Source: a virus
Length of the DNA: 34,005 nucleotides
IMG/VR virus record: IMGVR_UViG_3300037508_001628
Coordinates: 1-34,005 of that record
Strand: one strand, 5' to 3'
This document shows positions 1,899 to 31,436 of this stretch, piece after piece. A program made the translations under genes and the position numbers. Positions within the stretch are counted from its first letter, which is position 1. Each line of letters begins with the position of its first letter. The notes under the pieces were generated by a model. The model was not told the DNA's origin and did not search any database. It worked only from the letters and a program-made list of their open reading frames with translations.

Positions 1899-2459
1899 TT
1901 AAGTGTTTAAAGGGTAAAAATAGACGTACACTTCGTATAACTTGTGACAAATATCCAAAAGCAAATCTGAAATTTCATATTCGTGCAATTTAGCTGGGGC
2001 ACCTGAATCTTTTAATTGAAGCATAAAAGCCTTTCTTTCGACGTCTATTGAGTTTGTTTTAGCTAAAAGGTAGTACCACCCTAATTGAATTGCCCAAGCT
2101 CTATGAGATGGCGCGGAAGAAGTTTTAAAATCTATTATGTATTTGTCTTGCTCTCCTGGAATAGAAAAAACACCATCAATTTGCCCTGTTACCATTTTTG
2201 ATTCATCATATAACCTTTGTTCTTGTGAATGATAAATCGGCTGTTTTTCTTCTTCCCATCTTATATAGCTGTTGAAATACTTTTTTTCTCTTTCGTTAAG
2301 TTCAGGAATAGGTAAACCTAAAGTGTTCATTTGTATTGCTTCATGAACATTAGTTCCTATGTTTGCTTTGTTTTTCAAAACTATTGGGTCAATTTCTGAA
2401 AAATCCTTCCACGGGTTTATAATTTGGCTAACTCTTATGTATCCTTTTTTTATATCCAT
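1899..2459 (-). CDS. PD-(D/E)XK exonuclease, RecB/Cas4-like
   Basis: 186 residues. The visible catalytic series is that of RecB-type nucleases: a His in NVHEA (about 38-42), TGQIDGVF (Asp), YIIDFKTSS (Asp-x-Lys) and the late QLGWYYLLA (Q-x3-Y). Such proteins resect duplex ends and supply single strands to an annealing protein. ERF is encoded two genes downstream, giving the usual two-component phage recombination pair. The SD AAAGG is 8 nt from the ATG. The start abuts a short divergent control region (2460-2529). Confidence 0.8.
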   Translation of the reverse strand: MDIKKGYIRVSQIINPWKDFSEIDPIVLKNKANIGTNVHEAIQMNTLGLPIPELNEREKKYFNSYIRWEEEKQPIYHSQEQRLYDESKMVTGQIDGVFSIPGEQDKYIIDFKTSSAPSHRAWAIQLGWYYLLAKTNSIDVERKAFMLQLKDSGAPAKLHEYEISDLLLDICHKLYEVYVYFYPLNT

Positions 2460-2529
2460 TTTATTTACCTTTATGATATGTTACATGCTTGTAGTCTACA
2501 TTTTAAATAATAATATTAAAAGGAAAATA

Positions 2530-2811
2530 ATGAGCACAATTCAAGATTTAAGAAAATACATGGATAGAGAAAACATTACTGGAGAGATGTTTGCTAGAAT
2601 TTGTAATTTGAACGTGAAAACAATTTATACATGTTTAAATGGCGGGAAAATAAGAGCTGACACAGCTAGAAAAATTCATGTTGGAACTCGAGGAGAAATA
2701 GACCTTGGCATCGAATATAAATCTAATAAATGGTATACACCCAAAGTGAGACCTTTTACAAAGAGAAAAATTTGTGCTAAGAAAACAAAGCAAACATGCG
2801 AGACGATTTAA
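2530..2811 (+). CDS. Small Cro/XRE-like HTH protein
   Basis: 93 residues. An HTH of the Cro/C1 type is visible at about residues 17-40 (GEMFARICNLNVKTIYTCLNGG), followed by KIRADTARKIHVGTRGEIDL. The C-terminus is basic. The start chosen is ATG 2530, preceded by AAAGGA; an upstream in-frame ATG at 2359 would run through the divergent exonuclease gene and has no SD. It is transcribed away from the recombination genes, so a repressor or Cro-type role in the early region is likely. It overlaps the next gene by 38 nt. Confidence 0.7.
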   Translation: MSTIQDLRKYMDRENITGEMFARICNLNVKTIYTCLNGGKIRADTARKIHVGTRGEIDLGIEYKSNKWYTPKVRPFTKRKICAKKTKQTCETI

Positions 2812-3127
2812 CTCAGTAGCTTGTTGGGCTATAGTCGATGAAAAAGAATCTTACTTTCGCTCAAAAAAAGAGCTGTCTTATGCAAGACATCTTGAGTTTA
2901 TGAAAAAGATTGGAGAAATTAAAGATTTTGAGCATGAACCACAGACTTTTTATTTCGATGGTATTCGCCGGGGTGTTACTAATTACAAACCTGATTTTAA
3001 AGTTATTCGACTGGATGGCACTCATTTTTGGGTAGAAGTAAAAGGGTATATGGATGCTAAAAGCGCTACAAAAATAAAAAGGTTTAGAAAGTATTTTCCG
3101 AATGAAGAATTAGTAGTTGTTACGTAA
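2774..3127 (+). CDS. DUF1064-type PD-(D/E)XK nuclease
   Basis: 117 residues, starting at GTG 2774 inside the end of the HTH gene. Motifs fit the DUF1064 / PD-(D/E)XK fold: SKKELSYARHLEF (upstream Glu), NYKPDFKV (PD) and FWVEVKGY (E-x-K), then a short basic helix. This family occurs in phage replication and recombination modules and is thought to be an endonuclease. The substrate cannot be told here. Its stop overlaps that of the convergent tail gene (TTACGTAA serves both strands). Confidence 0.75.
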   Translation: MLRKQSKHARRFNSVACWAIVDEKESYFRSKKELSYARHLEFMKKIGEIKDFEHEPQTFYFDGIRRGVTNYKPDFKVIRLDGTHFWVEVKGYMDAKSATKIKRFRKYFPNEELVVVT

Positions 3128-3986
3128 TATATTCAGTTATCACAACAATTCCTGCTCCACCTGCTCCACCTCCAGTTCCTCCTCCGCCTTGTGAACCTGA
3201 TGCGCCACCTCCACCTCCTCCGGTATGTCCTGGATTTCCGACTGCATTTCCTTCAACTGCACCTCCTCCTATTCCAAACATAGATGTTCCTCCTTGCCCC
3301 GAACATCCTAATGGTTGGATAGATGTGCCAAAATAAAAAGTGTACAATCCTTTGCAACCTGGAATAGAAAAATCACCTCCAGAACCTCCATTCCCTCCAT
3401 TCCCACCTAATATAAGAGCATCAGAGTTTCTTGAAGGTCCACCTGTACCACCATTTCCTCCTTTGCATGTAATTAAATTCCCAACTAATGTGTCGCCGCC
3501 AATTCCTCCATTTCCTCCACTAGTTCCGGCTGCTCCTGCTGCTCCTACAGTAATAGATTGACTTGTTCCTATGGAACTCGCATTATAAAATCCTCTTCTA
3601 TATTCCCCAGAACCACCACCAGAACCTAGAGAGATGGTGTTAGCAGAATTACTTGCGCAACTTCCTCCGCCACCACCCGCCCCTTGAGCTTCTATGATAC
3701 AATAAGACATTCCTGCTGTGGGCGTATAAGTTCCTGAAGCTGTAAATGTTTGAATATTTATAGAAGTAAATCCTAAAGATGAAATTGTTTGAAAACTAGG
3801 ATTTGCAGAGCCGTTTGAAACTAAAACTTGGCCCGTGGTGCCTGGTGAAATAGATACAACTGTTTGGTTTTCTCCTGCAACTAAAACTCCGTATTGTGTT
3901 ACTTCGGATGTAGAGATAACACCTAAGTCGGAAGTTACAATTCCATTTCCTGAGATATTTAAGGCGTTTGCGGGATTACCAGCCAT
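3120..3986 (-). CDS. Glycine-rich tail fibre protein
   Basis: 288 residues from ATG 3986 (SD AAGGA, 6 nt). A more upstream start is possible but overlaps the previous gene and lacks an SD. The N-terminus (MAGNPANALNISGNG) matches the PANA-NI opening of the next paralogue. The middle is Thr/Ser-rich, and from about residue 95 it becomes very glycine-rich (GAGGGGGSC, GGNGGTGG, HTGGGGGGASG), ending VVITEYIT. Glycine-rich C-terminal domains of this kind form the receptor-contacting tips of several phage fibres. It is the last gene of the late group, often the variable adhesin position. Confidence 0.7.
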   Translation of the reverse strand: MAGNPANALNISGNGIVTSDLGVISTSEVTQYGVLVAGENQTVVSISPGTTGQVLVSNGSANPSFQTISSLGFTSINIQTFTASGTYTPTAGMSYCIIEAQGAGGGGGSCASNSANTISLGSGGGSGEYRRGFYNASSIGTSQSITVGAAGAAGTSGGNGGIGGDTLVGNLITCKGGNGGTGGPSRNSDALILGGNGGNGGSGGDFSIPGCKGLYTFYFGTSIQPLGCSGQGGTSMFGIGGGAVEGNAVGNPGHTGGGGGGASGSQGGGGTGGGAGGAGIVVITEYIT

Positions 3987-22643: not shown

Positions 22644-23410
22644 CATTCTGTTACCCCGCATTTTTGCGTGAATTGGTCATTTCTGCCAATTTCTGCGATT
22701 TTATATATAGTCGCAGATCAGACTATCGCTTCACCTTTCGGTGTCCACTCGCCTTAGTCGTTCAGGCTGTACATTTAATCATTAATCTTGTAGAATTACA
22801 TACACATCTAACAAGGGAGTTAAGATGACTAGAAGTAAATATACAAGAATTGAATATGAATCTACAAAATTGGCCTATCTTGCTGGAATTATTGATGGTG
22901 AAGGAACACTTTTCATAGGAAATTACGGAACCAAGGATAAAATCCGAGGAACGGGATTCTTTCAAACAATAATGGCGGTTACAACTACCGATGTTGTTCT
23001 CATAAATTGGCTTTATGAAAATTTTGGTGGCTGGAAATCCGAATACACTCCAAAACAGAGAGCTAAAAATTGCAAAGGACCTGTTCACAGCTGGAAATGT
23101 ACCGGAGATAGACTTACTCATTTGTGTGAATTGATTCTTCCTTTTCTTATTATCAAAAAAGATCAAGCTACCATTCTTTTGGAAATGAGAAAAACTTACT
23201 TTAATTCCGAATATCAAATCGGAAAACAAGGAGTTCAACACATTCCTGATGATGTTATCGCTAGAAGATTGGAACTTATGGATCAACTCAAAAAACTTCA
23301 TTGTAGAAACCATACTTTTAATAATTAAACACTTGCCCCTTGTTGCCCTCAATGAGGGGTTCCAAGTCAATTAGAGCAGATTTTAAACAGGCAATATCTT
23401 CAAAATTTTT
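22644..23410 (-). ncRNA. Group I intron 3 (767 nt) with antisense LAGLIDADG gene
   Basis: P1: exon AACAGGT pairs with GCCTGTT (U.G at the splice site). P10: the guide's GAAGATATT pairs with the 3' exon AATACTTC apart from one bulge. Core: TTGACTTGGAA line (complement at 23360-23370), P3 TCTGCTC/GAGTGGA, P7 GACTA/TAGTC, P8 CACC-GAAA-GGTG. The segment CTGAACGACTAAG is identical to intron 1. The endonuclease ORF fills the loop between the P4-P6 and P7 regions on the opposite strand. The intron ends CAGAATG. Confidence 0.85.
22825..23328 (+). CDS. LAGLIDADG homing endonuclease, antisense within intron 3
   Basis: 167 residues. A single LAGLIDADG motif is clear (LAYLAGIIDGEGTL, about residues 17-30), so the enzyme probably acts as a homodimer; the two Asp/Glu-rich helices at the motif form the interface and metal site. 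VTTTDVVLINWLYENFGG and LPFLIIKKDQATILLEM fit the family fold. ATG 22825 has a strong SD (AAGGGAG). It is encoded on the strand opposite to the capsid transcript, so it needs its own promoter and is not made from the intron RNA. It would cleave an intronless capsid gene to spread intron 3. Confidence 0.9.
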   Translation: MTRSKYTRIEYESTKLAYLAGIIDGEGTLFIGNYGTKDKIRGTGFFQTIMAVTTTDVVLINWLYENFGGWKSEYTPKQRAKNCKGPVHSWKCTGDRLTHLCELILPFLIIKKDQATILLEMRKTYFNSEYQIGKQGVQHIPDDVIARRLELMDQLKKLHCRNHTFNN

Positions 23411-29183: not shown

Positions 29184-29423
29184 TTATCTAAAGGCACTTT
29201 CTTTGAAACCCAAAGTCTTGCCAAAATTAACATCATCACCGTAGTATTTAGGTATCTTATGCGTCATCACAGCATAACGAAGTGCGTCGCAATTTTTCAC
29301 TATAATTCCATTGGCAATCATGTTTCCATTCTTTTTTGTCGCTAAACAATAAACATCTTGTTGTTTGTCCAGTCGTTTTATAGATTTAATTTTTACGCCT
29401 ACTACTTCCACATTTTTTTCCAC
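29184..29423 (-). CDS. Terminase large subunit C-part: intein C-half plus C-extein
   Basis: 79 residues from GTG 29423 (AAGGTAAGG 4 nt upstream). Residues 1-44 are the C-terminal intein half: block F DVYCLATKKNGNMIANG and block G IIVKN ending in the catalytic Asn; the penultimate residue is Lys instead of the usual His, and block F has Cys where Asp is common. The +1 residue is Cys, and the C-extein CDALRYAVMTHK (35 residues in all) completes the nuclease motif of the terminase. It is in the same frame as the N-part but separated by the HNH ORF. Confidence 0.85.
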   Translation of the reverse strand: MEKNVEVVGVKIKSIKRLDKQQDVYCLATKKNGNMIANGIIVKNCDALRYAVMTHKIPKYYGDDVNFGKTLGFKESAFR

Positions 29424-29973
29424 AAAACCTTACCTTTAAATATTTATTTCTCATAAACAGAGATCCACATTTTTCACATTTAATTTCAATATCATCTAAG
29501 CCTGAATCTCTTCTCCATTTAGATTTACATTTATTAGAACAAAATCTAGTTCTTTTTAAATCTATTTTATCAATTTCAAATTCTTTTTTACATTGATCAC
29601 ATATTGATTTTTCTGGGCTATTTCTTGCAAATGTTTGTTTCGCATGCTTCGAGTGCCACTCTTTTCCTTCTTCGCTTGCGTGCCACGCTTTTGTCAAATG
29701 TTGAATTTTACTCATTCTTTCGGCAGCCCATTTTTTTCTTTCAATAGTCATATGCATGGATAAGTGATCTTTTTCAGTTAGTTTTTTCAAATTAGAAATG
29801 TCATTATTAGATTTGTTCCCATCAATATGATGAATATGATACCCATCTTCAACAGGACCATAATGATATTCATATACCCATCTATGAGCACGAATTCTTG
29901 GATAATCTGTTGAAATCCAATAACCTGTTTCTTTATCTAAATAGAATTTTTTTCCGAAATGTTCCTGGTGCAT
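29386..29973 (-). CDS. HNH homing endonuclease inserted in the intein
   Basis: 195 residues in a different frame from both terminase parts, overlapping the N-part by 37 nt and the C-part by 38 nt. The HNH core is clear: RAHRWVYEYHYGPVEDGYHI, HHIDGNKSNNDISNLKKLT, then EKDHLSMH. The C-terminal part has two zinc-binding motifs (CDQCKKEF ... FCSNKC and CEKCGSLF ... FCGKKC). No SD precedes ATG 29973, so it may be made by frameshift, coupling or not at all from that ATG. Probably drives homing of the intein-HNH cassette into intein-free terminase genes. Confidence 0.85.
   Translation of the reverse strand: MHQEHFGKKFYLDKETGYWISTDYPRIRAHRWVYEYHYGPVEDGYHIHHIDGNKSNNDISNLKKLTEKDHLSMHMTIERKKWAAERMSKIQHLTKAWHASEEGKEWHSKHAKQTFARNSPEKSICDQCKKEFEIDKIDLKRTRFCSNKCKSKWRRDSGLDDIEIKCEKCGSLFMRNKYLKVRFCGKKCGSSRRKN
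29412..29421 (-). repeat. 10-bp direct repeat, right flank of HNH cassette
   Basis: Minus-strand GGAAAAAAAT, identical to the copy at 29946-29955. The two copies are 534 bp apart (178 codons), so loss of one copy plus the intervening DNA joins the intein halves in frame (EKN|VEVVG). The A7 run is also a possible slippage site. Confidence 0.6.
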
Positions 29974-31436
29974 GTTAGTACTATATCAGATAGTGTCAAT
30001 TGTTGCAATTCGATATAGCCTCTTTTTGTAAGTATTTGATGATCTCCAGTTGCGACTAGTTTTTTCCCATCTTCCAGCTCAAGTTCATAGACAATTGCAT
30101 TCTCACGTGTCAATGAAGGATTGTAAGCAATATCTCTTTCGATCATACCCATTTCAACATCATAACTTAACATGGGCAAATCATGAGCAAATTTATCAAT
30201 TACTCTCATACCAAGAGGTGTCATTATTTCGGTTCCGTAAGCTACACAAGCATGATCATTCTTTTTTAAAGGAGCATCTAGTCCCATTTCAGCTTTACGA
30301 GAATCCCACACATAACCTTCGATTTCTCTAATCAAGTTTTTACAGTTATTCATAATGAAAAGATTTCCTTTTTGCATTTCAGAAGACATGTAGCTAATTC
30401 CATCAAGAACATCATTATTTGCATCAACAGGTTTTAATCCACGTCTTCGTAATTCCTCTTTAAAAGAAGCTGCGCTAGGATCAACATAAATCCCCCTAAC
30501 GCCATAAGGCTCAAGAAAATCTTTAATATCATCTGCAAACTCACTATGGGTTTTACCCTTTTTTGTTACCGAAATATCCCAATAATATTCTTTTTCTACC
30601 CATCGCATAGGGCCTGATTGTTCATACCTGCCTGTGCTTATTCCTATTATAACGCAAGCAAATGCATTGGTAAATCCCACATCAATTCCAGCAATGAAAT
30701 ATTCTGCTGCTCTGGGGGCAGTTTTAACCACATAGATGTCTCGATCAAAGAAGTCAAATATAGCGCCATCAGCCAAACACCAAATACCAAGATAATTACG
30801 TTTATAAAAAAGACCACTAAGAGAGTTGCGGATACGATTTTTATACTCTTCTGGAACATATGGGTTATCATCAAGCGTGTAATGAAGCTCATAATAGTTT
30901 GGGTCTCCTTGCTCAGCTTTATCTATCCATGTTTTTAGAATGTGGTTAGGATGAGAGGGGTTCATTGAAGCAAATAACATAGAATAGGGCTTAGAAAGCC
31001 TAGTGTCTATCATGTTGATAACAGATTCCGAATAAAGAGTCATTTCATCACAGTAGCACAAAGACATAGTAGACCCTTGAATAGCTCCGATTGCACCATC
31101 GTCTTTAACTCCAAGAGTTTTTATTACTTTATCTTTGAACAATAACTCTCTGTCTCCTTTTCTCCACATACAAAAAGGACGCCATACCGAAAAAGGATCG
31201 GGAGTTCCTTTTGGAGGTCTTGTTAGTAAAAGCGATATGGCGTTATTAAAAATGGTAGTAGAGGTTTTACCAATCATCCAGATATCAGAATCTGAACAAT
31301 CATCAACGGCATCCATAAACCTAAAAAGAGTCCCAACAGTCTTACCTGATCGAACAGATCCGTGAGCTAAATTTATTTTCTTATTCGCCTCAAGAATAAA
31401 CTGTAATTGCTTTGGAGCCAATGGTTGCTGTATCAT
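29937..31436 (-). CDS. Terminase large subunit N-part with intein N-half
   Basis: 499 residues: 396 of terminase and 103 of intein. ATPase: Walker A GSVRSGKT (about 26-33) and Walker B LCYCDE. Nuclease: FIAGIDVGF (first Asp), GIYVDPSA (second Asp), and KNDHA, where the gene is cut. At CVAYGTEIMT the intein begins (block A, Cys1); LVATGDHQILTKRG is block B (TxxH). The frame stops after TRNISEKNSI, so the C-terminal intein half must come from another ORF. Spliced terminase would be 431 residues, normal for the family. The start at ATG 31436 has no SD and lies at the predicted transcription start (leaderless). Confidence 0.88.
   Translation of the reverse strand: MIQQPLAPKQLQFILEANKKINLAHGSVRSGKTVGTLFRFMDAVDDCSDSDIWMIGKTSTTIFNNAISLLLTRPPKGTPDPFSVWRPFCMWRKGDRELLFKDKVIKTLGVKDDGAIGAIQGSTMSLCYCDEMTLYSESVINMIDTRLSKPYSMLFASMNPSHPNHILKTWIDKAEQGDPNYYELHYTLDDNPYVPEEYKNRIRNSLSGLFYKRNYLGIWCLADGAIFDFFDRDIYVVKTAPRAAEYFIAGIDVGFTNAFACVIIGISTGRYEQSGPMRWVEKEYYWDISVTKKGKTHSEFADDIKDFLEPYGVRGIYVDPSAASFKEELRRRGLKPVDANNDVLDGISYMSSEMQKGNLFIMNNCKNLIREIEGYVWDSRKAEMGLDAPLKKNDHACVAYGTEIMTPLGMRVIDKFAHDLPMLSYDVEMGMIERDIAYNPSLTRENAIVYELELEDGKKLVATGDHQILTKRGYIELQQLTLSDIVLTCTRNISEKNSI
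29946..29955 (-). repeat. 10-bp direct repeat, left flank of HNH cassette
   Basis: Minus-strand GGAAAAAAAT in the last codons of the intein N-half (S-EKN). In the N-part frame it reads A_AAA_AAT, a possible -1 slippery heptamer that would lead into the HNH frame. Pairs with the copy at 29412-29421. Confidence 0.6.

What the first reader, a model, noticed from the sequence alone, without database searches (positions are those of the whole stretch)
29412..29955. HNH cassette flanked by a 10-bp repeat whose loss restores an in-frame mini-intein
Seen: GGAAAAAAAT occurs exactly at both junctions (29946-29955 and 29412-29421), 534 bp apart, a multiple of three. Recombining the copies gives S-EKN-VEVVG and a 141-residue mini-intein with all splicing blocks. 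The same A7 runs are the points where a -1 (into HNH) and a +1 (out of HNH) shift would fuse everything into one protein. So three models compete: insertion with repeat duplication, double frameshifting or slippage, and homopolymer sequencing error.
Basis: partly seen in the sequence, partly recalled or inferred. Interest (0 to 1): 0.7.

Follow-up and report, generated by a model that had tools for sequence, protein, structure and literature searches.

The report
Split-intein phage terminase with nested endonuclease
A phage DNA-packaging gene is broken in two by a mobile DNA-cutting (HNH) gene, each broken end carries half of a protein-splicing element (intein) that very probably rejoins the protein after it is made, and the repeated A-rich sequence that drew attention is a coincidence of lysine codons.

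Summary
The repeat is real: GGAAAAAAAT at 29946-29955 and 29412-29421, 534 bp apart, and joining the copies gives an open 141-residue mini-intein. It is not informative. Both copies encode Gly-Lys-Lys in the HNH frame, so a multiple-of-three spacing is automatic. Such a match arises in 22% of synonymous permutations, and neither junction is conserved in relatives.

The locus is best explained as a fractured gene. ORF 1 is TerL 1-396 plus a 103-aa Int-N. ORF 2 is a 195-aa HNH endonuclease overlapping both intein halves in the -1 frame. ORF 3 is a 44-aa Int-C plus the 35-aa TerL C-terminus, with its own SD-like sequence and GTG. Trans-splicing would rebuild TerL (inferred, not shown). The layout recurs in divergent phages without the A7 runs. 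A relative (L092) has a contiguous mini-intein keeping a remnant of the HNH 5' end. Sister phages carry the same kind of HNH free-standing behind an intact terL.

A wider result followed. In 57 of 58 contiguous non-redundant inteins carrying this HNH, nearly all at the same terL site, the HNH is nested in that same frame, with 0 stops against 119 expected. The window shows no such constraint (12 stops, 11.4 expected).

The parts
29937..31436 (-). TerL N-half ORF, 499 aa: N-extein (TerL 1-396, 30249-31436) plus Int-N; TAG stop at 29937-29939
   Evidence: PBSX-family TerL TIGR01547 E 1.9e-31, intein N-terminal region TIGR01445 E 6.4e-5 at aa 397-470; Pfam terminase and Intein_splicing; PHROG terminase 1.1e-47
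29940..30248 (-). Int-N, 103 aa, Cys1 ... TGDH (block B) ... SEKNSI-stop
   Evidence: own HMM E 1e-26; invariant Cys1, T, T, H in the alignment with relatives; PDB hits to inteins, weak
29386..29973 (-). HNH homing endonuclease ORF, 195 aa, -1 frame relative to both intein halves, with two CxxC zinc-finger pairs; overlaps Int-N by 37 nt (stop codon included) and the Int-C ORF by 38 nt
   Evidence: Pfam HNH_3 3.5e-17; PHROG HNH 1.8e-33; closest solved structure I-HmuI 1u3e E 1.7e-4; model mean pLDDT 92
29184..29423 (-). C-half ORF, 79 aa, GTG start: Int-C (44 aa, 29292-29423) plus C-extein CDALRYAVMTHK... (35 aa, 29184-29291 with stop)
   Evidence: intein C-terminal region TIGR01443 E 7.8e-7, above its cut-off; Pfam Intein_splicing 1.1e-7, below its cut-off; own HMM E 2e-17
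29428..29436 (-). SD-like AAGGTAAGG 4 nt before the GTG of the C-half
   Evidence: duplex energy -6.5 kcal/mol, within the best 5% of random positions; comparable starts in L109, L110, L114, L093
29946..29955 (-). first GGAAAAAAAT copy = HNH codons GGA AAA AAA T(TC), Gly-Lys-Lys-Phe; not conserved
29412..29421 (-). second GGAAAAAAAT copy = HNH codons GGA AAA AAA T(GT), Gly-Lys-Lys-Cys in the last zinc finger; not conserved
29289..29294 (-). C-terminal splice junction: last intein residue Asn and Cys+1 of the C-extein (KN|CDALRYA); penultimate residue is Lys, not His

Best explanation
The locus is a fractured terminase gene. TerL is encoded as two proteins, TerL(1-396)-IntN and IntC-TerL(last 35 aa), which associate through the two intein halves and splice in trans into one 431-aa TerL whose C-terminal piece brings the DALRYA nuclease motif. 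Between and overlapping them lies an independent HNH homing-endonuclease gene, read in the -1 frame, which would cut intein-free terL near the DHA|CDALRYA codons and spread the whole cassette by homing. In this lineage the HNH came from, or exchanges with, free-standing HNH genes that sit next to terL in sister phages. Shown by sequence: the layout, the splicing motifs, constraint on all three ORFs, recurrence, empty sites, and a relative with a contiguous mini-intein. Inferred: trans-splicing, HNH cleavage and homing, the start codons used, and the direction of the changes.
For: Intein N and C motifs with TerL exteins in two ORFs. Same architecture in L014/L109 and L093, where Int-N ends at TAG at the homologous place; close variants in L110, L111 and L114. 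Isolates with a fractured TerL intein: Lactobacillus phage CL2, Vibrio phage 1.245.O and Brochothrix phage BL3; in BL3 the HNH is largely deleted while the split intein halves remain. SD-like sequence plus start codon for Int-C in WIN, L109, L110, L114 and L093. Codon position 2 changes least and position 3 most in nearly every pairwise comparison of Int-N, HNH and Int-C. The intein frame across the HNH holds 12 stops against 11.4 expected, so it is not maintained as one reading frame. TerL relatives with the uninterrupted site, 46 matched. Mini-intein relative L092, best PDB match the NrdJ-1 split intein by sequence (4.9e-7) and by fold (5.9e-11). Free-standing HNHs behind intact terL share the HNH N-terminus and group with the window HNH at 98% SH-aLRT, with no contiguous member in that set.
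Against: No splicing has been shown. The penultimate residue is Lys instead of the usual His. Pfam Intein_splicing scores for the halves (21.3 and 32.2 bits) are below its whole-domain cut-off of 35.8. The HNH ATG lacks an SD sequence, so how the HNH is made is unclear. The Int-C start is a GTG, not at the same codon as in relatives. All close relatives are metagenomic contigs.
Confidence: 0.85

Rival explanations
1. Programmed or slippery frameshifting at the two A7 runs (-1 into HNH, +1 out) makes one TerL-IntN-HNH-IntC-TerL protein, a conventional in-frame HNH intein read by two shifts.
For: The runs lie at the right places, A AAA AAT in the TerL frame is a plausible -1 slippery heptamer, and the HNH ATG has no SD sequence.
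Against: A7 is absent at both junctions in L109/L014, L114, L110 and L111 and at the second junction in L093. Two rare opposite shifts would be needed for an essential protein. The C-half has its own SD-like start. BL3 keeps the split halves after losing most of the HNH. A single -1 shift as an auxiliary way to express the HNH in this phage is not excluded.
Confidence: 0.05
2. Homopolymer sequencing or assembly error: the real sequence has A6 or A8 runs and one continuous ORF.
For: A7 runs are classical error sites.
Against: Contigs from three metagenome datasets are identical over the 2.5 kb. L014 and L093 have the same broken layout without matching A7 runs. Two compensating errors would be required.
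Confidence: 0.01
3. Recent insertion of an HNH cassette with duplication of the 10-bp GGAAAAAAAT target, transposon-like, into a mini-intein.
For: Direct repeats at both ends; excising between them restores an open mini-intein.
Against: The repeats lie inside the HNH ORF as Gly-Lys-Lys codons, not at its ends, and are expected by chance. They are not conserved. The natural HNH-less relative L092 joins at other bases, within the HNH 5' and 3' ends.
Confidence: 0.03
4. The terL is a decaying pseudogene on a defective phage contig.
For: The gene is broken into pieces, and the contig is metagenomic.
Against: All three ORFs show protein-level constraint across relatives, splice-site residues and C-extein are intact, and the layout is shared by phages whose TerL is only about 64% identical, including isolates of other lineages that grow.
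Confidence: 0.05

Closest known systems
Fractured genes with naturally split inteins and an intervening homing endonuclease (Dassa et al. 2009, doi 10.1093/nar/gkp095, not held here; AceL NrdHF in PMC7891396: 98-aa Int-N, 48-aa Int-C, GIY-YIG gene between)
   Same: Host gene split at the intein, endonuclease gene between the halves, canonical split position (here 103 + 44 aa), in a phage.
   Different: Host gene is TerL at its nuclease motif; the endonuclease is HNH with two zinc-finger pairs and its ORF overlaps both intein halves in the -1 frame.
AceL-TerL, GOS-TerL and Cat-TerL split inteins (listed in PMC11766414)
   Same: Naturally split inteins in phage terminase.
   Different: Those have a very short Int-N of 25-37 aa; here the split is at the usual endonuclease insertion point. 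Insertion sites were not compared.
ShiLan out-of-frame HNH element in a phage methylase (PMC11855218, 2025)
   Different: ShiLan has no intein splicing domains and its host frame stays open; here there is a full set of intein motifs and the intein frame is broken.
I-HmuI (PDB 1u3e), HNH homing endonuclease
   Same: Closest solved structure of the HNH by profile (1.7e-4) and by fold (5.5e-3).
   Different: I-HmuI is encoded in a group I intron; sequence identity is low, and the fold match is partial because domain packing differs.
NrdJ-1 split intein (PDB 8ubs)
   Same: Best sequence and fold match of the related mini-intein L092.
   Different: Other host gene (ribonucleotide reductase); 27% identity.
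Mycobacteriophage TerL inteins (PMC5050341)
   Same: Inteins in phage TerL.
   Different: Those all lie in the ATPase domain; this family lies in the nuclease motif DH|CDALRY.

Membership tests
Fractured gene with naturally split intein | Host protein encoded by two ORFs ending in Int-N and starting with Int-C | tested here: met
Fractured gene with naturally split intein | Splicing residues present: Cys1, block B TxxH, terminal Asn, Cys+1 | tested here: met
   the penultimate His is absent (Lys)
Fractured gene with naturally split intein | Homing-endonuclease gene between the halves | tested here: met
Fractured gene with naturally split intein | Independent translation start of the C-half | tested here: inconclusive
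   SD-like AAGGTAAGG and GTG, -6.5 kcal/mol; no expression data
Fractured gene with naturally split intein | Protein trans-splicing | not testable with these tools
   needs expression of both halves
HNH homing endonuclease | HNH motif and DNA-binding zinc fingers | tested here: met
HNH homing endonuclease | Occupied and empty alleles of one site in related genomes | tested here: met
   uninterrupted DHxxDALRYA-type site in 46 related TerL loci
HNH homing endonuclease | Cleavage of the empty allele | not testable with these tools
   needs an in vitro assay
Contiguous intein with overprinted out-of-frame HNH (class found here) | Intein frame open across the HNH | tested here: not met
   12 stops in the window
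Contiguous intein with overprinted out-of-frame HNH (class found here) | HNH in the -1 frame of the intein | tested here: met
Insertion with target-site duplication | Repeat at the element's ends, conserved or beyond chance | tested here: not met
Programmed frameshift gene | Conserved slippery site | tested here: not met
ShiLan-type out-of-frame HNH without intein | No intein splicing domains | tested here: not met
   intein motifs found

The most novel reading that the evidence does not exclude
Phage terminase inteins commonly encode their homing endonuclease not as an in-frame domain but as a gene overprinted in the -1 frame of the intein. In the viral and phage set, 57 of 58 contiguous non-redundant loci share one frame relation, with 0 stops against 119 expected; a genome collection gave 23 more with 0 against 41. 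The fractured loci, including this one, would be a repeated alternative state in which trans-splicing releases the two reading frames from each other. Natural split inteins could then arise as an escape from overprinting, as well as by invasion of a free-standing HNH gene, the likelier route for this window.
Probability: 0.5. Interest if true: 0.75.

Novelty: new variant of a known kind. Interest (0 to 1): 0.55.

Why it matters
How split inteins arise is still open. Here one terL site shows related phages with every state side by side: empty site, free-standing HNH behind an intact gene, contiguous intein with an overprinted HNH, fractured split intein with HNH, split intein with a decayed HNH, and a contiguous mini-intein that kept a scrap of the HNH. 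That makes the order of events testable. It also shows that out-of-frame endonucleases, reported in 2025 for phage methylase insertions, are frequent inside true inteins, so annotators miss both the endonuclease and the C-terminal terminase piece. The split halves are also candidates for protein-ligation tools.

Tried and rejected
Group I intron: no Rfam match in the window, nor in L014, L028, L029, L075, L092, L095, L112, L118 or L143. Descent of this HNH from the overprinted class: not supported by the tree, since its supported set holds only fractured and free-standing HNHs, nor by its amino-acid make-up (11.4 expected stops against about 2 in the contiguous class). A first joint alignment of Int-N, Int-C and mini-intein was misaligned and not used; an Int-N-only alignment replaced it. 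The careful ML tree did not finish in time and the quick tree is used. Looking for an SPbeta precedent in NC_001884 75-95 kb found nothing relevant. The preprint most likely to describe out-of-frame endonucleases in inteins (doi 10.1101/2025.01.02.630785), Dassa 2009 and Gorbalenya 1998 are not held, so priority could not be checked.

Full report
Observation. But both copies are codons of one ORF: GGA AAA AAA TTC (GKKF, near the HNH start) and GGA AAA AAA TGT (GKKC, last zinc finger). Their spacing is therefore a multiple of three by necessity. When the synonymous codons of the HNH ORF are permuted, a match of 10 nt or more between its first and last 60 nt arises in 22% of cases. A third copy lies far away at 1096.

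Anatomy. On the minus strand, ORF 31436-29937 is TerL 1-396 followed by Int-N (Cys1 at 30248) and a TAG stop. ORF 29973-29386 is an HNH endonuclease with two zinc-finger pairs. ORF 29423-29184 (GTG) is Int-C plus the last 35 residues of TerL, starting CDALRYA. Pfam, NCBIfam and PHROGs agree on these assignments. The two intein halves are in the same frame, and the HNH is in the -1 frame to both.

Relatives, and why the A7 models fail. The locus is identical in contigs from three metagenome datasets. L014 (same locus as L109), with TerL about 64% identical to the window's over the N-extein, and L093 have the same layout, with the Int-N stop TAG at the homologous place. L110, L114 and L111 are close variants. 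In the DNA alignments the first A7 corresponds to GGACGAAAGTTC, GAAACAAAGTTT, GGAAAAAAGTTC and GAAAAAACCTTC. The second corresponds to CTAGAAAATGTTC, CTGCTCATGTTC and others. There is no conserved slippery site and no conserved repeat. The intein frame across the window's HNH holds 12 stops, and 11.4 are expected from its codons, so it is not one reading frame with a recent error.

How it most likely works. Int-C has an SD-like AAGGTAAGG and a GTG; relatives have comparable signals (L109 AAGGAATAAATATG, L110 AAGGAAATAAATATG) lying inside the HNH 3' end. The HNH ATG has no SD sequence and lies 34-37 nt upstream of the Int-N stop in WIN, L109, L114 and L093 (82 nt in L110); translational coupling is my inference. 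Int-N, HNH and Int-C all show the codon-position pattern of protein constraint. In Brochothrix phage BL3 the HNH is largely deleted, yet Int-N and Int-C stay in two ORFs, so the split does not need the HNH. Together this supports trans-splicing of TerL, with the HNH as a separate homing gene. Splicing and cleavage themselves are not shown.

Origin in this lineage. Sister phages with intact TerL carry the same type of HNH directly downstream of terL (L028, L029, L112), sharing the N-terminal motif HQ.H(F/Y)..(R/K)KFY.D. A quick tree puts the window HNH in a 98%-supported set of six fractured and five free-standing HNHs and no contiguous ones. L092 has a contiguous mini-intein at the same site that begins the HNH region with ATGGACCATCAATACCATTTC and then jumps to the HNH 3' tail. 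Its model (mean pLDDT 85, pTM 0.80) has the intein fold, best match NrdJ-1 at 5.9e-11.

The wider class. Searching with the HNH family and classifying with own HMMs gave 76 non-redundant loci with intein halves on both sides. Of these, 58 are contiguous. In 57 of the 58 the HNH is in the -1 frame of the intein, in one it is in the other frame, and in none is it in frame. Across these 57 HNH genes the intein frame has 0 stops where synonymous permutation gives 119; the third frame is at expectation (1026 against 1059), and 25 free-standing HNHs are at expectation too (195 against 178). A scan of bacterial and archaeal genomes gave 23 further contiguous loci with the same relation (0 against 41), nine fractured loci and one conventional in-frame intein from another family. 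Cultured or named members include Acinetobacter phage Highwayman, Tetrasphaera phage TJE1 and Rhodobacteraceae phage LS06. Most N-exteins match terminase profiles, and nearly all insertions fall at DH(A)|C..ALRY. Fractured loci arose more than once: the starred branches alone force at least three changes of the label.

Comparison and novelty. Fractured genes with split inteins and an endonuclease between the halves are known (PMC7891396 and its references), as are split TerL inteins of another geometry (PMC11766414) and out-of-frame HNH insertions without intein in phage methylases (PMC11855218). This locus is a new variant: TerL nuclease site, HNH overlapping both halves. The overprinted class may already be noted in a preprint that could not be read here (10.1101/2025.01.02.630785), which PMC11855218 cites for overlapping frames in actinobacteriophages; I therefore hold back on priority.

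Limits. No expression data are available. Close relatives are metagenomic. The trees are quick ones with long branches. The synonymous-permutation null keeps the amino-acid sequence, so it understates the constraint. The genome-collection loci were not deduplicated.

Noticed in passing
window 22825-23328 (+): A second, free-standing homing-endonuclease-like ORF (167 aa, LAGIIDGEGTLFI motif); PHROG 5046, labelled HNH endonuclease, E 3.7e-20, while Pfam LAGLIDADG_1 is below threshold (E 0.062).
   Followed up: partly
L177 1397-2293 and 2666-3595: One locus with two successive contiguous inteins, each with a nested out-of-frame HNH: the first at GLDWGFS|CDPFAF, the second at DNH|CIDASRY.
   Followed up: partly
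L095 (Exiguobacterium phage vB_EauM-23) about 2260-3300: At the same terL site the same HNH family sits in an insertion with no intein motifs: the gene stops shortly after NNHS and CDATRY resumes downstream. It looks like an intron, but Rfam gives no match.
   Followed up: partly
L102 (Brochothrix phage BL3) 1936-2523: Split TerL intein in which only the zinc-finger end of the HNH remains; the C-half is annotated as gp3 without function.
   Followed up: partly
L100 (Vibrio phage 1.245.O) 2217-3323: Schitoviridae TerL broken by the same kind of cassette; the Int-C ORF is annotated as a separate hedgehog/hint domain protein.
   Followed up: no
L179/L180: The only contiguous intein with the HNH in the other alternative frame: 0 stops where 5.0 are expected.
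   Followed up: no
L243: Nitrososphaerales archaeon locus, the one case with a distant HNH in frame with its intein.
   Followed up: no
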